64,000 nt of DNA from Paenibacillaceae bacterium (GTDB lineage: Bacteria > Bacillota > Bacilli > Paenibacillales > CANHGK01): NCBI GenBank assembly GCA_947460235.1, contig CANHGK010000004.1:90144-154143 (forward strand). Reading direction: 5' to 3'. This document shows, piece after piece, positions 3,816 through 53,246 of this stretch (its first letter is position 1; each line of letters opens with the position of its first letter). Both the position numbers and the translations under genes were made by a program. The notes below the pieces were generated by a model. It ran no database searches. It had not been told where the DNA came from and was given only the letters and a program-made list of their open reading frames with translations.

Positions 3816-5068
3816 GATTTCACCTCGTTAACCTTTTCATCTGCAGCACGACGGCGTATCCATGCGTGCGATACAAACATGATTAAACCGCTAATGACAA
3901 ATATTAAAAATTTAACATTCAAATTCCAATCTACAATTGCAAAAACCGATAGTGTGACTACTAAAAACTGAATCGTACCAAGCACAGGTAACGCCTGCCT
4001 CTTCTCCACCGAACCACGCCACAATGAAAGTAACGCATGAATCGCATATGGAATGAGTGGCAATAACGACAAATACCTGACATCGGACCACTTCTGATAT
4101 GTTGCATCATTCGATTGCGGCGTGATCGTCGGGTTCAAAATAAACCATGGAATTAATACAAGTCCATCTGTAAGTGCAATTTTTTCTCCTCGGCGAATGA
4201 GCTGCCAAGCACTGAGTGCCAATAACAATGTTCCAATCACCAAGTACGTATACTGCGCAGTTCCGAATTCTCCCCAAAATGATGTACTTTCCGCCGAAAT
4301 CGCAAAAAACAATCCATTGATAAACATCCCATATAATCCAATTGTACGATGCGAAACACGATATTCTTCTGTTTTTTCCCACGTGTTTAAACCATAAAGC
4401 ACAAGCCACCATATCGTGAGCCAATATGAATCTGCATGATATATCGAAATGAATTTAAGTGCATACGCGATTGATCCAACGCTCCAAAACCACATTAACC
4501 ATGGTTTTCCATTCAACCGTGGATATGCAAAATAACCGAAGATATAAATAAAAATTACCACGTACTCCCATAACAAATTCCCCGAACCAAGTGTTAACCC
4601 ACTAAATGAAATCGCCCAACCAAGGATGTAAAGCACAGTACTTCGATTCCACCATGCCATCCCGAGTGCGGCCAACGACCAAAGCACAAACGGTAGTTCA
4701 GATTGGGAACCAAGTTGAAACATTTGCGCGGTTAAAATTAATCCTGCGCCAAAACTAATCACACCAAGGCCAATCATCCCAATCGCTGTCGGCTCATTTC
4801 CGCGCCGTTTAAAGAAATCACCTAAACCATAGAACGCGATCACAAAAAACAATACAATTCCTAGACGCACCCAGCGGTCAATATCATCCCAATTCGATGC
4901 AATCCAACTGATCAATCCTAACCCAACTAATAAACTCGCAAAAAAAGGCATTAAATTTGCAAATCCAGAGCGTTGAGGATATCTTGAAATAATTAAGTCA
5001 AATTGCTCATTCGTAATAATTCCTGCTTCAACCCATTTACGAGCCTCTCGAAATAACCAACTTCCCAT
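3812..5068 (-). CDS. DUF2157 polytopic membrane protein
   Basis: A 418-residue integral membrane protein. A cytoplasmic N-terminal helical part (REARKWVEAGIITNEQFDLI) is followed by about ten to twelve hydrophobic segments. This N-terminal layout and the partner gene match the DUF2157 family, whose function is unknown. I place the start at the ATG (MGSWLF) seven bases after an AAGGAGGG site rather than at an upstream in-frame ATG that has no such site. It is the first gene of a two-gene operon with the GDYXXLXY gene. Confidence 0.75.
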   Translation of the reverse strand: MGSWLFREARKWVEAGIITNEQFDLIISRYPQRSGFANLMPFFASLLVGLGLISWIASNWDDIDRWVRLGIVLFFVIAFYGLGDFFKRRGNEPTAIGMIGLGVISFGAGLILTAQMFQLGSQSELPFVLWSLAALGMAWWNRSTVLYILGWAISFSGLTLGSGNLLWEYVVIFIYIFGYFAYPRLNGKPWLMWFWSVGSIAYALKFISIYHADSYWLTIWWLVLYGLNTWEKTEEYRVSHRTIGLYGMFINGLFFAISAESTSFWGEFGTAQYTYLVIGTLLLALSAWQLIRRGEKIALTDGLVLIPWFILNPTITPQSNDATYQKWSDVRYLSLLPLIPYAIHALLSLWRGSVEKRQALPVLGTIQFLVVTLSVFAIVDWNLNVKFLIFVISGLIMFVSHAWIRRRAADEKVNEVKS

Positions 5069-5129
5069 AATAAACCCTCCTTCATACAATGGCTAAATTT
5101 TAACATATGTTCTAATTTGTTTCCAATTA

Positions 5130-5176
5130 CAGAAAAAAGCATGCCTCGAACGAAGTCGAGACATGCTTTTTACCAT
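5130..5176. terminator. Terminator after gcvH
   Basis: The strong hairpin AAAAAGCATG.CTCGA / TCGAG.CATGCTTTTT has A and T tracts on both sides. It lies just beyond the gcvH stop and upstream of the DUF2157 gene. Confidence 0.85.
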
Positions 5177-5185
5177 TTTTATATA

Positions 5186-5569
5186 CTACGCACCATAGGT
5201 TGCAACGTATTTCTCTGCACTCCACAATTGATCAAGCTCGGATGGACTGCTCATTTCAATTTCAACCATCCAACCAGAACCATAAGGAGCTTCATTTACT
5301 TTCTCAGGTGATTCAGTCAACTGATTGTTAATTGCTACAATCTTACCTGTAACAGGGGAATATAATTCTGAAACCGTTTTGACGGATTCAACACTACCGA
5401 AAGGATCTCCGAACTTCACAATTGTCCCAACTTTCGGTAATTCTACGAAAACGATATCTCCTAATTCGCCTTGTGCAAAGTCAGTAATTCCAACTCGAAT
5501 GACGTTGTTTTCTTTCACTTCGGCCCATTCATGCTCTTCACTATACTTCAATTGCTCCGGTGTGTTCAT
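5186..5569 (-). CDS. gcvH: Glycine cleavage system H protein
   Basis: A 127-residue lipoyl carrier protein. The lipoylated lysine is Lys64 in [13 protein letters not shown], and the [19 protein letters not shown] core is typical of GcvH. In the glycine cleavage system it shuttles the aminomethyl group between the P, T and L proteins. In B. subtilis-type bacteria GcvH is also the obligatory relay that passes lipoyl or octanoyl groups to other enzymes. No gcvT, gcvP or lip gene lies nearby. Its start (AGGAGGGG, then ATG) overlaps the stop of the thioredoxin-like gene by four bases, so the two are coupled. This pairing hints at redox care of the lipoyl dithiol, which is inference. Confidence 0.93.
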
Positions 5570-6051
5570 ACTTGCCCCTCCTGGACTGGCGCTACTTCTT
5601 CGGTTACGCCCAAAATTTTGTGTAGTCGTTGCTCGACCATTTTCAAGCCTTTCTCACCAGCTTGGAAATGACGTAATTGATGATTCTCATCGAACAAATA
5701 AAATGCAGGTACATATTCGTTCTGGAATGCTTCAGCGACAGCGTGATCATTATCGATGATCACAGGATGCGTCAATTCATATTCGTTCACGATCGCCTTT
5801 GCTGAGGCAATATCCAAATCTTTCTCCGAACGCGGCATGTGTACGCCAACAATTTGCAAGTTATATTGTTCACCGAACGTATCACGCCAAATATTAATCA
5901 TTGGCAAGCTTTCCTTACACAAATAACAACTTACCGCCCAAAAATGGACCAAGACCGGTTTGCCTTGGAGCGCTTCGCGCTGAGCTTCACCATTAATCCA
6001 TTCCGTCACACCAGCGAAAGCAGGTAACTCCGTACGTAAACGCATTGGCAT
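5566..6051 (-). CDS. TlpA/thioredoxin-like protein
   Basis: A 161-residue thioredoxin-fold protein of the TlpA/ResA/AhpC-TSA group. The redox motif is C42-Y-L-C45 in [14 protein letters not shown], and the cis-proline region is [11 protein letters not shown]. There is no signal peptide or membrane segment with the start chosen here (MPMRLR, after AAGGGGGAATCAATA), so it is probably cytoplasmic, unlike many TlpA proteins. It probably reduces or exchanges disulfides. The last codons overlap gcvH. A terminator-like hairpin separates it from the peroxiredoxin gene upstream, so co-expression with that gene is uncertain. Confidence 0.8.
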
Positions 6052-6076
6052 TATTGATTCCCCCTTAAAATAACCG

Positions 6077-6112
6077 AAAAACCCTCCCACCTGCAAGATG
6101 CAGACAGGAGGG
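6077..6112 (-). terminator. Terminator after peroxiredoxin gene
   Basis: On the minus strand CCCTCC...CTGCA pairs with TGCAG..GGAGGG and is followed by TTTTT. It lies between the peroxiredoxin stop and the TlpA-like start. Confidence 0.75.
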
Positions 6113-6132
6113 AAATTAAATTTAGTTTTGGA

Positions 6133-6681
6133 TTAACCAGCTACAAGTGTTTTTTGACCTGGTTTCCAGTTCATAGGGCACAATCCGCCGGATTGTAGTG
6201 CTTGCAGAACACGCAATGTTTCTTCTACGGAACGTCCAACGTTCAAGTGGTTAACGACTTGGTAAACCAACTCGCCTTCTGGATTGATAATGAACAAACC
6301 GCGTAATGCGATCCCTTCATCTTCGATCAATACGCCGTAATCGCGAGCAACTGTTTTATTGATATCGGAAGCCAAATCATAATTCAACTTGCCAAGTCCA
6401 TTATCTTCACGAGCTGTGTTGATCCATGCGCGGTGTGAATGTTTACTGTCTGTAGATACACCAAGAATTGTTGCATCCAAGTTTTCGAACTCTTCAACTG
6501 CATCACTTAACGCAATGATTTCAGTTGGACAAACAAAAGTGAAATCCAATGGATAGAAAAACAATACTAACCATTTTCCATTATAATCTGATAATGTTAC
6601 TTTACCGAATTCTTTACCGTTACCTGCTGCAGTTTCCATTGTAAAATCCGGTGCTGCTTTACCTACTAAACGCTCTGCCAT
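6133..6681 (-). CDS. Typical 2-Cys peroxiredoxin (AhpC/Prx1 type)
   Basis: A 182-residue peroxiredoxin that reduces hydrogen peroxide and organic peroxides in the cytoplasm. The peroxidatic cysteine is Cys51 in YPLDFTFVCPTE, and the resolving cysteine is Cys168 in GGLCPMNWKPG. The start MAERLVGK follows AGGAGGAATTATAGT. The GGLCP/WKPG C-terminus resembles the eukaryote-like Prx1 group, also found in some Bacillales and cyanobacteria. Thioredoxin is the likely reductant because no ahpF is near. It is followed by a thioredoxin-like gene and gcvH, a small thiol-redox cluster. Confidence 0.9.
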   Translation of the reverse strand: MAERLVGKAAPDFTMETAAGNGKEFGKVTLSDYNGKWLVLFFYPLDFTFVCPTEIIALSDAVEEFENLDATILGVSTDSKHSHRAWINTAREDNGLGKLNYDLASDINKTVARDYGVLIEDEGIALRGLFIINPEGELVYQVVNHLNVGRSVEETLRVLQALQSGGLCPMNWKPGQKTLVAG

Positions 6682-6794
6682 ACTATAATTCCTCCTGAAG
6701 ATACGTGTTTTTTGCACGACTTCATGTTATCATAAAACGATTGCACAGAGCAAATGAACGATTTGTGTACAATATTTTATACGAGGTTTTCGGG

Positions 6795-7598
6795 ATGGAA
6801 TTGTTCGATTTTTTCAAAAACAAAAAAGGAATTGTGCTTATTATCGTGCTGTTCATTGGGGTATCTACCGTTGTATCTCGGCTTTACGACTCCAAGTTGA
6901 CAGCACATACGGAACTAACCATTTCCGCTGCATCCAGTTTAAAAAATTCACTTTCCGAAATCGCGGTTCAATTTGAGGCATCTCATCCAGACATACATCT
7001 AACCTTTAATTTTGGATCCTCTGGCTCGCTCGCATCTCAAATTCAAGCAGGTGCACCAGTTGATCTTTTTATTTCTGCTTCAAAAAAACAAATTGAATCA
7101 CTAACCGAAGCACATCTGATCGATTCAAAGGATGTAATCGAACTTCTTTCTAATCAACTCGTATTTATCATTCCAAATAACAACACATTTCAACCACGTT
7201 CACTAAACCAATTATCAAGTGATTCCATCCGTTCAATCGCTATTGGTCAACCTGACTCCGTTCCTGCAGGTCAATATGCAATTGAGGCATTGCAAAATGC
7301 AAAGCTCTACGCTGCGCTCCAACAAAAATTGCTGTATGCTAAAGACGTTAAACAAGTGTTAAGTTATGTTGAACGCGGCGATGCAGATGCAGGAATTGTC
7401 TATTTATCTGATGCATCCGCTTCCAAATCTGTACAGATCGCATTTCCAATTGATTCATCATTGCATGCACCGATTATTTATCCACTTGCAATAATTTCAT
7501 CAACTAAACACCCAATCGAAGCAAAACTCGTAAGTAATTATTTTAACAGTACGATTGCAGATAACGTGTTTACAAAATACAGATTTACTTTGAGGTGA
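6795..7598 (+). CDS. modA: Molybdate ABC transporter substrate-binding protein
   Basis: A 267-residue protein with an N-terminal hydrophobic segment (KGIVLIIVLFIGVSTVV) serving as signal or anchor, then the ModA fold. ELTISAASSLKNSLSEIA gives the first oxyanion-binding loop. TFNFGSSGSLASQIQAGAPVDLFISAS is the second ligand loop. It would capture molybdate or tungstate outside the membrane. The signal carries no lipobox Cys, so anchoring may be by the uncleaved helix. The start ATG follows ACGAGG by eight bases. modB follows after four bases; no modC ATPase is in the window. Confidence 0.88.
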   Translation: MELFDFFKNKKGIVLIIVLFIGVSTVVSRLYDSKLTAHTELTISAASSLKNSLSEIAVQFEASHPDIHLTFNFGSSGSLASQIQAGAPVDLFISASKKQIESLTEAHLIDSKDVIELLSNQLVFIIPNNNTFQPRSLNQLSSDSIRSIAIGQPDSVPAGQYAIEALQNAKLYAALQQKLLYAKDVKQVLSYVERGDADAGIVYLSDASASKSVQIAFPIDSSLHAPIIYPLAIISSTKHPIEAKLVSNYFNSTIADNVFTKYRFTLR

Positions 7599-49866: not shown

Positions 49867-50310
49867 ATGAATCATAATCAACGAGGAGTTTCGTTAATTG
49901 AAATGATCCTTGCAATTTTTCTATTCGGATTAATTCTTTCATCAATTCTCGTTGTCTTTTCCTATACAAAACAATTATCAATCCAAGAACAACAATTAGA
50001 TCAATCGAAAGAAATTGCTCAACAAATGCTACGCGCACTTCAAGAACAAACCAAAGAAAATCAAATTACCGTATTTGGTGAATCGATCCCGCTTACAAAG
50101 CATACGTTAACTTCCAAATATTCATTCATCACAAGTGATTTTAATGTAAGCATTGACGCGTTACCAATCCAATCTAGTGAAACCATTACGCTGGGTACAA
50201 AACATTATTTGATGAGTACATACTTCCGCAAATTTAGGGTATGCGTCTGGAAAATCGGATCGGATCAACGACGAGGTATTCAACTAGAACAATTCGTTGT
50301 TGCCCAATAG
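49867..50310 (+). CDS. Type IV prepilin-like protein (PilV/GspI position)
   Basis: A 147-residue protein with a class III signal: NQRG cut before VSLIEMILAIFLFGLILSS, with Glu at +5 and a long hydrophobic helix. The globular part is short and has no clear family. The start ATG follows GGAG by nine bases. It is the first gene of a three-gene operon of prepilins. No assembly ATPase, platform protein or prepilin peptidase is in the window, so these must be encoded elsewhere if the operon works. Confidence 0.82.
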   Translation: MNHNQRGVSLIEMILAIFLFGLILSSILVVFSYTKQLSIQEQQLDQSKEIAQQMLRALQEQTKENQITVFGESIPLTKHTLTSKYSFITSDFNVSIDALPIQSSETITLGTKHYLMSTYFRKFRVCVWKIGSDQRRGIQLEQFVVAQ

Positions 50311-50346
50311 TCATGAAGATTCATGATGAAAAAGGAGAATCCAACG

Positions 50347-52725
50347 ATGTACATGAAAAACGAAAAAGGCTCAGCAATCGTTGCGGTTTTAATCGTCCTA
50401 ATGATCAGTTCATTTTTAATCGTTACAGAACTGATGGTCTTGAACATGAATTATACCGATCAAAACCGAACTATTTCGATTTTAAAAGCACACACGATCG
50501 TTGATTCGACCGGAAATGTCATCAAAAGAATACAAGAAGCTGCTCTGAAAGATGGAACTGACTTATCCTATTCAACTCTTACTTCCTTGAGCAGTCAGAC
50601 CTCTTCACTTGTAAAATTATACGATTCAAATTCTGCAAGTATTTTCGTCCAAAACGATATAAGTAGCGGAAATTATTCGATGTATATCCAAAGCATTTTA
50701 AATAATCAAAAACAATCTCTAAAATTAATTTCCACGAATCGATTGATCACACAACCAGAATTTATGTTGATCAATCAAAAGACAGGGCGATGTGTTGATA
50801 TTGTTAGCGGCGGAACTTCGGATGGTACGGCCATTTGGAATTGGACCTGTAATGGAACAGGTGCACAAGTTTTTAGGACCATTCAAACTAACAACGGCTA
50901 TTTTAAAATTCAAAATTCGACAAGTAATAAAGTGATTTCAATTCAAAACAACGCAACAAATGATGGTGCATCCATTGTCACAAACACGGATACGAACGCA
51001 TATTCACAGCAATTCAGTTTCGAATCGGTCACTGGGAATACTTACCGCCTTGTGAATCGTAATAGCAGTAAATGCATCGGGATCGGAAATAATTACCCCA
51101 CAACATTTGATCGAGAATTATTTTTACAGCGCACTTGTTCATCGACCGATACGAGTTTGCAATTTTTACTTGTGCGTACCGATATGTCGATCAATATGAG
51201 TGAAACTGGATTTTATATTGACAATGCATTTCAACTTCGGAACGTTAAAAGTAACAAATGTGTTGATCTATACATGGCAAATCCGAGCGACGGAACAAAC
51301 ATTTGGCAATATGATTGCAATAATACTAATGCACAAAAATTCAATTTCACTTCGACGGATGCAAATCAATTCGAAATCCGCAACATTGATTCGCTAAAAA
51401 ATATGGAAGTGGAAGCCGGCAGTTTATTGGATGGTGCGGACATCCGACAATGGTCCACTAGAAATACATTGTATCAACAGTGGGAAGTCACAGCACTTAA
51501 TGACAGTAGCAATCCTTCAGGTAATTTTTCGATTGGAAAGTGTACTGGTACAGACCGCAATACAAATTGGTATTGTAATGGTTCCGTCAAATTCAATTTA
51601 TCAAACAAATTATCAAACAAGTGTATGGGTGTCACAAATGGTTCATTGTCTTCCGGAGCAGATCTTCGACAATATGAATGTAATGGATTATCAGATCAAC
51701 AATTTTACTTGAATTTAGTTGATTCAGCCATTTCCCTCGCTCCGTACGATTTTTTGAGAAACGGACGCTATCAAATCGTCTATCATTATGCAAACAAATG
51801 CATGGACGTTCCAAATGCATCAACATCAAGTGGCGCTATCATACAAACTTGGACTTGCAACAATACAAATGCTCAAAAATTTGATTTCACTTATAGCGGT
51901 GATGGATATTACACAATTTCCAATGTTAATTCCTTAAAATCACTGGATTTCGATCCATCATCCCAATCGCTCATTCAGAACACAACAAGTACAAGTAATT
52001 CTCAACGCTTTCGTTTTCATTTGCTAAATGGTAACCAATTTTCAATTACGAATCGCGCCCAATTAAATTGTATTGATACCACAGGACAAACTTCTACATT
52101 TGTGTACGAAATAAAAGACGGACTGATCTTTAAACAAAATGGTTGTTATGCAGCGCCGCCGCAAATTTTTCGAATCGAACCGGCAGGTGTTACTGGTGAA
52201 ACTCTTCCTATTGGCCGATATCGCATTCAAAACATGAACAGTGGAAAATGCATGAGTATTGCAAACGCTGATCTAACCAATGGCGCCAAAGTTGTACAAT
52301 TGACTTGTGAGGATCAACCAGAACAAATGATGGATCTGAATTTGTCCAGCAATCAACATTTCGGTTTGTTCAATATGTTAAGTGGGAAAAGTATAGAAGT
52401 AGCAAATGCATCTCAAGCAAACGGTGCGACCGTCCAACAATGGACAAGTGTAGGCCAAGCAAATCAAGAAGTATATTTTGTAAAAACAAATACGGCTGAT
52501 GTCTTTGAAATACATCCGCTTCACAGCAATAAATGTTTGGACACACAAAATCAGAGTACAACGGAAAACACTAACTTAGTACAAATGCAATGTAACAATC
52601 AGTCATCTCAACAATGGAAAATCACACCTTGGCGTCTACCTGTAAATTATTCAAAGTTTCCCGATATGCGCACAAATTCAAGTCATAATTTCACGTTACT
52701 TCAAGCCATCGTAAATGGTTTTTGA
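50347..52725 (+). CDS. PilX/GspK-like prepilin with four ricin-B-type lectin domains
   Basis: A 792-residue protein. The N-terminus KNEKGSAIVAVLIVLMISSF is a class III signal and helix without the Glu+5, as in PilX and GspK proteins that cap a pilus tip. From about residue 135 to the end there are twelve repeats of the ricin-B type: GRCVDIVSGGTSDGTAIW, NKCVDLYMANPSDGTNIW, LLDGADIRQWS, NKCMGVTNGSLSSG, NKCMDVPNASTSSG, GKCMSIANADLTNG, QANGATVQQW, NKCLDTQNQS, QSSQQWKI and others. Three repeats make one beta-trefoil, so four are expected. Many Cys pairs suggest disulfides outside the cell. It should bind a sugar. The start follows AAGGAGA by eight bases. Confidence 0.82.
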   Translation: MYMKNEKGSAIVAVLIVLMISSFLIVTELMVLNMNYTDQNRTISILKAHTIVDSTGNVIKRIQEAALKDGTDLSYSTLTSLSSQTSSLVKLYDSNSASIFVQNDISSGNYSMYIQSILNNQKQSLKLISTNRLITQPEFMLINQKTGRCVDIVSGGTSDGTAIWNWTCNGTGAQVFRTIQTNNGYFKIQNSTSNKVISIQNNATNDGASIVTNTDTNAYSQQFSFESVTGNTYRLVNRNSSKCIGIGNNYPTTFDRELFLQRTCSSTDTSLQFLLVRTDMSINMSETGFYIDNAFQLRNVKSNKCVDLYMANPSDGTNIWQYDCNNTNAQKFNFTSTDANQFEIRNIDSLKNMEVEAGSLLDGADIRQWSTRNTLYQQWEVTALNDSSNPSGNFSIGKCTGTDRNTNWYCNGSVKFNLSNKLSNKCMGVTNGSLSSGADLRQYECNGLSDQQFYLNLVDSAISLAPYDFLRNGRYQIVYHYANKCMDVPNASTSSGAIIQTWTCNNTNAQKFDFTYSGDGYYTISNVNSLKSLDFDPSSQSLIQNTTSTSNSQRFRFHLLNGNQFSITNRAQLNCIDTTGQTSTFVYEIKDGLIFKQNGCYAAPPQIFRIEPAGVTGETLPIGRYRIQNMNSGKCMSIANADLTNGAKVVQLTCEDQPEQMMDLNLSSNQHFGLFNMLSGKSIEVANASQANGATVQQWTSVGQANQEVYFVKTNTADVFEIHPLHSNKCLDTQNQSTTENTNLVQMQCNNQSSQQWKITPWRLPVNYSKFPDMRTNSSHNFTLLQAIVNGF

Positions 52726-52751
52726 TGAATGAATGCAAAGGAGGTGTCCAT

Positions 52752-53246
52752 ATGAAAACTATCATACGGCACCTCCATGCGAATCAACGCGGGGTATCTT
52801 TAGTCGAATTACTTGTAACAATTGTTTTAATTGGACTTGTTTTTGCAATCTCGTTTCAAATCGTTGGCTATATGAACAATAGCAATGCCGAAATCGCACG
52901 AAAAGAAAGCTTATTACGTGAAATGCGGTTTGCAATGGATGAAATTCGCTCAGAATGGATCAAAGAATCATTTCACAATTTAACTTGTAACAATTGCATC
53001 CTTCAATGGGAAGCTGGCAATCATAAAATTTTATTTGCAATCGATACACGTGGACTATATCAGCAAGACCAGACAAACCAAATCAATATGCTTGCGCCAC
53101 ACGCAACGACAGGAACTAGTATGTCAATTATAAAAAATCAGCTTACCGTCAATATCGTTTTAAAAAACCAAACGACGATGTGTTCACAAAAAACAGTCTT
53201 TGCTAGAACCGATTGGATGAATTCGACGTTAACTAGTTCGGATTAA
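52752..53246 (+). CDS. Type IV prepilin-like protein (PilW/GspJ position)
   Basis: A 164-residue protein with a class III signal: NQRG before VSLVELLVTIVLIGLVFAIS, Glu at +5. The soluble part contains TCNNCI and one more Cys. The start follows a near-perfect AAAGGAGGTG. It is the third gene of the prepilin operon. Its last 18 bases overlap the convergent PHP gene. Confidence 0.82.
   Translation: MKTIIRHLHANQRGVSLVELLVTIVLIGLVFAISFQIVGYMNNSNAEIARKESLLREMRFAMDEIRSEWIKESFHNLTCNNCILQWEAGNHKILFAIDTRGLYQQDQTNQINMLAPHATTGTSMSIIKNQLTVNIVLKNQTTMCSQKTVFARTDWMNSTLTSSD

What the first reader, a model, noticed from the sequence alone, without database searches (positions are those of the whole stretch)
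49867..53246. Prepilin operon whose tip-type subunit carries a four-trefoil ricin-B lectin
Seen: three adjacent genes each with a class III signal and helix (NQRG-VSLIE, KNEKG-SAIVAVL, NQRG-VSLVE). The middle one lacks Glu+5 and has twelve ricin-B-type repeats over about 650 residues. Known: PilX/GspK-like prepilins without Glu+5 sit at pilus tips, and ricin-B trefoils bind sugars. Inferred: a lectin-tipped pilus or pseudopilus that attaches cells or secreted enzymes to a polysaccharide, encoded between a GH119 amylase and two giant GH15 enzymes. I know of no described system with this make-up.
Basis: partly seen in the sequence, partly recalled or inferred. Interest (0 to 1): 0.82.

Follow-up and report, generated by a model that had tools for sequence, protein, structure and literature searches.

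The report
Lectin-bearing tip pilin in starch-eating bacterium
A starch-degrading Gram-positive-type bacterium carries a small operon for the tip of its type IV pili in which one subunit has four sugar-binding (ricin-type) domains, and a sister operon elsewhere in the genome carries starch-binding domains instead, suggesting that it fits its pili with different sugar-gripping heads.

Summary
Genes 49867-50310, 50323-52725 and 52752-53246 (+) are an operon-like prepilin trio. The middle protein (800 aa) has a class III signal without Glu5, then 12 ricin-B repeats forming four trefoils (residues 145-769). A model of trefoil 4 is confident (pLDDT 92.8) and matches the CBM13 of an exo-1,3-galactanase (TM 0.95).

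The pilus reading holds. The genome has pilB, pilT, pilC, pilD, pilM/N/O and PilA, and the trio is a paralogue of the V-W-K minor-pilin (tip) set found in the pil locus across this order. A K-type profile built without this genome ranks the middle protein first among 251 window frames.

The genome holds three such trios. The plain one is on contig C3. Another, on C8, has a GspJ/PilW-type pilin fused to fn3-CBM25-CBM20, a starch-binding pilin. With 98 CBM25 modules the bacterium is a starch specialist, yet this is its only ricin lectin, so starch is probably not its target.

In kind this is a modular pilin (known: Streptococcus sanguinis) with several tip sets (known: Myxococcus). New are ricin trefoils on the Glu5-less K subunit and glycan-specific sister tips. 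Ligand and tip location are inferred.

The parts
49867..50310 (+). Gene 1: minor prepilin, 147 aa, class III signal MNHNQRG|VSLIE with Glu5; PilV/GspI-like by position, type uncertain by profile
   Evidence: Pfam N_methyl 2.9e-6; weak NCBIfam ComGE 8e-7 below cut-off; V profile 14.6 bits vs W profile 24.5 bits
50323..52725 (+). Gene 2: K-type (PilX/GspK-like) prepilin without Glu5, 800 aa, with four ricin-B trefoils
50323..50370 (+). Prepilin leader MMKKENPTMYMKNEKG (residues 1-16; predicted cleavage before Ser17)
   Evidence: sequence; alignment of six K-type N-termini with an invariant Gly at the cleavage site
50371..50754 (+). Pilin module: hydrophobic helix and small head, residues 17-144
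   Evidence: K-type profile without this genome, E 6.6e-5; helix 12-48 in a low-confidence model
50755..51180 (+). Ricin-B trefoil 1, residues 145-286 (repeats 1-3); alpha repeat keeps the pocket Asp and aromatic (CVD...WNWTC)
51211..51726 (+). Ricin-B trefoil 2, residues 297-468 (repeats 4-6), with a 29-residue Cys-containing insertion before repeat 6; alpha pocket kept (CVD...WQYDC)
51760..52182 (+). Ricin-B trefoil 3, residues 480-620 (repeats 7-9); alpha pocket kept (CMD...TWTC)
52213..52629 (+). Ricin-B trefoil 4, residues 631-769 (repeats 10-12); pocket degenerate in the alpha repeat, partly kept in gamma (CLD)
   Evidence: AlphaFold2 pLDDT 92.8, pTM 0.87; Foldseek 3vsf TM 0.95, ThreeFoil TM 0.93
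52752..53246 (+). Gene 3: PilW/GspJ-like minor prepilin, 164 aa, NQRG|VSLVE
   Evidence: N_methyl 1e-6; W profile 25.8 bits vs V profile 10.7 bits
49691..49866 (+). Intergenic stretch between the divergent htrA-like gene and the trio; the likely place of the trio promoter (no clear site; consensus matches at chance level)

Best explanation
The operon encodes an alternative minor-pilin tip complex of the cell's type IV pilus. Gene 3 (W/J-type), gene 1 (probably V/I-type) and gene 2 (K-type, lacking Glu5) are processed by PilD, form the complex that starts the filament, and are pushed outward on a PilA shaft by PilB. The K subunit, which can have no pilin above it, carries four ricin-B (CBM13-type) trefoils that grip a glycan multivalently; PilT can then retract the pilus and pull cell and target together. 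The genome has three such trios: a plain one in the pil locus, one with starch-binding CBM25 and CBM20 on its W/J subunit, and this lectin one. They are most likely alternative heads with different sugar specificity on shared pilus machinery. The lectin head probably recognises a galactose-, xylose- or arabinose-type glycan rather than starch. Shown here: gene content, prepilin signals, trefoil number and fold, paralogy to a conserved tip set, and presence of the machine. Inferred: tip location, use of the shared machine, sugar binding, ligand class and adhesive role.
For: Class III signals and trefoils. Trefoil model pLDDT 92.8, with the Ct1,3Gal43A CBM13 at TM 0.95. Machine in the same genome: pilB, pilT (454 bits, cut-off 319), pilC, pilD, pilM/N/O and two PilA on C3, and a second pilB-pilC-pilM/N/O set on C5. 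A K-type prepilin lies beside V- and W-type pilins in most of the pilus-bearing genomes of the order, usually one set each; this genome has three. Independent K profile and W profile. Starch-binding sister trio on C8. Of 21 K proteins scanned only this one has a carbohydrate module. Precedents: a lectin on a tip minor pilin (PMC9934059); three minor-pilin clusters serving one machine in M. xanthus (PMC7541494); a Glu5-less subunit caps the tip (PMC10191384).
Against: No expression, binding or imaging data. The pilin head of gene 2 could not be modelled (single sequence, pLDDT 41). Gene 1 is not clearly V-type. The trio lies on a different contig from either pilus machine, so shared use of the C3 machine is an assumption; the C5 machine could be its partner. 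The pocket Asp is lost in some repeats. No relative of the full operon was found elsewhere, so there is no comparative test of co-inheritance.
Confidence: 0.7

Rival explanations
1. Same lectin-bearing pilus tip, but its ligand is a glycan of the cell's own kind (exopolysaccharide, wall polymer, sister cells), so that it makes aggregates or biofilm rather than contact with food.
For: Type IV pilus tips can act in aggregation and biofilm formation (PMC13234629); the genome has no GH43 and is dominated by starch-binding modules, so an edible galactan or xylan is not evident.
Against: The sister trio carries starch-binding modules, which suggests food-directed heads; the surface glycans of this organism are unknown.
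Confidence: 0.3
2. The lectin head binds starch or another alpha-glucan, matching the amylase neighbourhood.
For: The trio lies between CBM25-bearing amylolytic genes; the genome is a starch specialist.
Against: Starch binding in this genome is done by CBM25 (98 matches) and CBM20; ricin modules are otherwise absent. The nearest solved relatives bind or act on galactan, xylan, arabinan and lactose. Neighbours are on the other strand and not in the operon.
Confidence: 0.12
3. A pseudopilus that presents or exports secreted enzymes (T2SS-like) rather than an extended pilus.
For: GspI-J-K-like trio; genes 1 and 3 have weak GspH/GspJ/GspG profile hits; neighbours are giant secreted enzymes.
Against: The order is monoderm, with no outer membrane to cross (from general knowledge); a PilT retraction ATPase is encoded in the pil locus, the mark used to tell T4P from T2SS (PMC9765702); the neighbouring enzymes begin with ordinary signal-peptide-like sequences.
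Confidence: 0.06
4. A relic or unexpressed domain-shuffling accident.
For: No close relatives found; some repeats have lost pocket residues.
Against: All three frames are open, with signals, cysteine pairs and three alpha pockets intact; a parallel sister trio exists.
Confidence: 0.07

Closest known systems
Streptococcus sanguinis PilA-PilB-PilC tip complex (modular pilins; PMC8179133, PMC9934059)
   Same: Monoderm type IV pilus; minor pilins with functional modules grafted on a small pilin module; one module (PilC) is a proven glycan-binding lectin; a complex of three minor pilins placed at the tip
   Different: There the lectin is a ConA-like domain on a Glu5-bearing pilin and the Glu5-less subunit (PilA) is plain; here four tandem ricin-B trefoils sit on the Glu5-less K-type subunit. 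That survey required the N_methyl signature, which gene 2 lacks, so this class would be missed
Myxococcus xanthus minor pilin/PilY1 clusters 1-3 (PMC7541494)
   Same: Several complete minor-pilin sets proposed to work with one major pilin and one machine
   Different: In Myxococcus the sets carry the non-pilin adhesin PilY1; here the effector modules are fused to the pilins themselves and differ in carbohydrate-binding family
PilV-PilW-PilX / GspI-GspJ-GspK tip complexes
   Same: Gene types (W/J, and K without Glu5) and presumed order of assembly
   Different: Ordinary PilX/GspK have other or no extra domains; gene 2 does not match Pfam PilX_N
Ricin-B/CBM13 lectins, e.g. the CBM13 of Clostridium thermocellum Ct1,3Gal43A (3vsf) and Streptomyces xylanase CBM13 (1knl)
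   Same: Beta-trefoil fold with three repeats per domain, TM 0.95 to 3vsf, pocket Asp in several repeats
   Different: Those are parts of secreted enzymes; here four trefoils are displayed on a pilin

Membership tests
Type 4 prepilin (gene 2) | Class III signal: short hydrophilic leader ending in Gly, then about 20 hydrophobic residues | tested here: met
   ...MYMKNEKG|SAIVAVLIVLMISSFLIV; invariant Gly with five other K-type prepilins; K profile from other genomes E 6.6e-5, best of 251 window frames
Type 4 prepilin (gene 2) | Pilin fold of the head (helix packed on a small beta-sheet) | tested here: inconclusive
   Single-sequence model pLDDT 41; only the helix 12-48 is credible
K-type (PilX/GspK) tip pilin | No Glu at +5, encoded beside V/I- and W/J-type pilins | tested here: met
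   Ala at +5; gene 3 W-type (25.8 vs 10.7 bits); gene 1 is an N_methyl prepilin whose V type is uncertain
K-type (PilX/GspK) tip pilin | Match to Pfam PilX_N (PF14341) | tested here: not met
   No match; only 1 of the 21 K proteins scanned matched it, so the model covers this group poorly
K-type (PilX/GspK) tip pilin | Physical location at the filament tip | not testable with these tools
   Needs pilus preparations or imaging
Modular pilin (sense of PMC8179133) | N-terminal pilin module plus a C-terminal domain not specific to pili | tested here: met
   Pilin module 17-144 and ricin-B domains 145-769
Modular pilin (sense of PMC8179133) | N_methyl signature (IPR012902), as the survey required | tested here: not met
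   Gene 2 has no N_methyl match; the C8 sister pilin with CBM25/CBM20 does. This was the survey's search criterion, not a mechanistic requirement
Ricin-B/CBM13 lectin | Curated family score | tested here: met
   PF14200 298 bits (cut-off 25.6), PF00652 157 bits (cut-off 29)
Ricin-B/CBM13 lectin | Beta-trefoil fold | tested here: met
   Trefoil 4 model pLDDT 92.8, 12 strands, TM 0.95 to 3vsf; trefoils 1-3 by sequence only
Ricin-B/CBM13 lectin | Sugar binding | not testable with these tools
   Pocket Asp plus aromatic kept in alpha repeats of trefoils 1-3
Type IV pilus system in the same genome | Prepilin peptidase, extension ATPase, platform protein, major pilin | tested here: met
   C3 locus L032 and C5 locus L033
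Type II secretion system | Lacks a PilT retraction ATPase | tested here: not met
   PilT, 454 bits against a cut-off of 319, in the pil locus

The most novel reading that the evidence does not exclude
One monoderm cell carries interchangeable, carbohydrate-specific tip complexes for its type IV pili: a starch head (CBM25+CBM20 on the W/J subunit), a ricin-lectin head (on the K subunit) and a plain head. It would choose among them to hold different polysaccharide surfaces, a pilus counterpart of the exchangeable binding modules on glycoside hydrolases.
Probability: 0.4. Interest if true: 0.78.

Novelty: new variant of a known kind. Interest (0 to 1): 0.62.

Why it matters
Adhesion of polysaccharide degraders to their substrate by pili is long known but rarely tied to a defined binding module on a pilin. 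Here two recognised carbohydrate-binding families are fused to two different subunits of the conserved tip trio in one genome, so the questions of whether tips are exchangeable and whether they set substrate choice become directly testable. It also shows that surveys keyed to the N_methyl motif miss modular pilins of the Glu5-less type.

Tried and rejected
AlphaFold2 on residues 1-286 alone gave no usable model. Searches of about 85,000 species' genomes for close relatives of the middle protein and of the C8 starch-binding pilin found no operon relatives; the latter hit only the fn3 stretch; these scans reach close relatives only. Pfam PilX_N was a poor probe in this order. Ricin proteins of relatives whose N-terminus could be read looked like ordinary secreted proteins or enzymes, and no class III signal was seen among them (several N-termini were cut off, and not all frames were identified with certainty). 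Promoter and terminator scans were at chance level. G+C of the trio (0.37-0.38) is within the local range, so there is no sign of recent import. The PilY1 search is uninformative because its controls did not ring. Literature searches for ricin-type prepilins, starch-binding pilins and tapirins found nothing relevant.

Full report
**What is there.** Three genes on the + strand, 12 and 26 bases apart, read like an operon: 49867-50310, 50323-52725 and 52752-53246. The first and third are N_methyl prepilins by Pfam (2.9e-6 and 1e-6); the middle one is not recognised by that model but is dominated by ricin-B lectin (RicinB_lectin_2, 2e-90). The upstream neighbour is a divergent HtrA-like protease; downstream a PHP-domain gene converges and overlaps by 18 bases; beyond these lie a GH57/GH119-like amylase with CBM25 and two giant CBM25-GH15 proteins.

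**The lectin part.** Residues 145-769 are twelve repeats in four trefoils. Every first and third repeat of a trefoil has a cysteine pair, every second repeat none; trefoil 2 has a 29-residue insertion with its own pair. Trefoils match each other with BLAST E-values of about 1e-11 to 1e-20, and the first repeats of trefoils 1-3 are among the most alike (32-44%), which points to duplication of whole trefoils. The pocket aspartate and aromatic residue known from CBM13 lectins are kept in the first repeats of trefoils 1, 2 and 3 (sequence; pocket positions from general knowledge of the family). A model of trefoil 4, using only the window's own four trefoils as alignment, has pLDDT 92.8 and pTM 0.87. 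Its best structural match is the CBM13 part of the exo-beta-1,3-galactanase Ct1,3Gal43A (TM 0.95, 1.0 A), then the designed lectin ThreeFoil (TM 0.93) and a range of galactose- and xylan-binding trefoils.

**The pilin part.** The middle protein begins ...KNEKG|SAIVAVLIVLMISSFLIV with Ala at +5. Profiles of K-type N-termini show that such a Glu5-less prepilin sits next to two Glu5-bearing prepilins (V- and W-type) at the pil locus in most of the pilus-bearing genomes of this order; the K proteins there are about 430-750 residues long. A profile built only from other genomes ranks the window's middle protein first of 251 window frames (6.6e-5) and gene 1 second. Gene 3 is W-type (25.8 vs 10.7 bits); gene 1 is ambiguous (W 24.5, V 14.6 bits) and is called V/I-like only by position. 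The pilin head itself could not be modelled.

**The machine.** The same genome (2.72 Mb, 42 contigs) holds a pil locus on contig C3 with pilB, pilT, pilC, two PilA-like pilins, a prepilin peptidase, pilM/N/O and a plain V-W-K trio, and a second pilB-pilC-pilM/N/O set on C5 without pilins beside it. PilT is well above its family cut-off, the prepilin peptidase matches both A24 models, and both PilB-type ATPases carry the MshE-type c-di-GMP motif. PilM, N and O are named from their order and sequence by inspection, not by a profile.

**Three tip trios.** A third trio lies on C8 (locus L034): a V-type prepilin of 223 aa, a W-type prepilin of 517 aa with fn3 (3e-8), CBM25 (2.6e-21) and CBM20 (8e-7), and a divergent K-type prepilin of 679 aa, next to a frame with an isoamylase C-terminal domain. 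V and W assignments for the C3 and C8 trios are clear. Among 121 genomes of the order, most pilin-positive genomes list three N_methyl proteins, this one seven, and the 518-residue C8 frame is the only listed one above 340 residues (the list is cut at the weak end). Of 21 K proteins scanned with Pfam, only the window's carries a carbohydrate module.

**Target of the lectin.** The genome has 98 CBM25 matches but only one ricin-B protein, the window's pilin, and no GH43. Starch is thus bound by CBM25 and CBM20 here, including on the C8 pilin, and the lectin trio more likely grips something else: a plant cell-wall glycan around starch, another organism, or the cell's own matrix. This is inference.

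**How it most likely works.** By analogy with tip complexes of type 4 filaments, which start assembly and are capped by a subunit lacking Glu5 (PMC10191384), the three gene products would prime a filament of PilA, be carried outward and display the four trefoils at the tip; PilT retraction would pull on bound glycan. Modular tip pilins with adhesive domains, one of them a lectin, are established in Streptococcus sanguinis (PMC8179133, PMC9934059). Several minor-pilin clusters serving one machine are established in Myxococcus xanthus (PMC7541494). A Gram-positive T4P operon in Paenibacillus thiaminolyticus (PMC9765702) is a further precedent for such pili in Gram-positive bacteria of this kind; that the window's order is that of Paenibacillus is a guess from its gene content.

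**Known or new.** The kind is known: a modular type IV pilin. New in the evidence seen here are ricin-B trefoils on a pilin, their placement on the Glu5-less subunit, and a sister trio with starch-binding modules in the same genome. No paper found in the searched library describes a ricin-type prepilin or a starch-binding pilin, but the library lacks most subscription journals, and the supplementary list of modular pilins of PMC8179133 could not be read.

Noticed in passing
L034:2584-4137 (-) (G000:C8): W/GspJ-type prepilin of 517 aa with fn3, CBM25 and CBM20: a starch-binding minor pilin, with V-type (4165-4836, -) and divergent K-type (4994-7033, +) partners.
   Followed up: yes
whole genome G000: 98 CBM25 matches in a 2.72-Mb genome, many in proteins of 1,000-1,750 aa: an extreme starch specialist, with no other held genome of its own family among the relatives returned.
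   Followed up: partly
L033:4854-10018 (+) (G000:C5): Second pilB-pilC-pilM-pilN-pilO set without any pilin gene beside it; its partner pilins are unknown and could be one of the extra trios.
   Followed up: partly
L126, L127, L129 (genomes G105, G107, G097): Genomes of one genus (g28) of the order also have a second V-W(-K) set; the second K proteins sampled in G105 and G107 show no carbohydrate module.
   Followed up: partly
   Followed up: no
L032:11639-13300 and L033:4854-6536: Both PilB-type ATPases carry the MshE-type c-di-GMP-binding motif, so pilus extension may be under c-di-GMP control.
   Followed up: no
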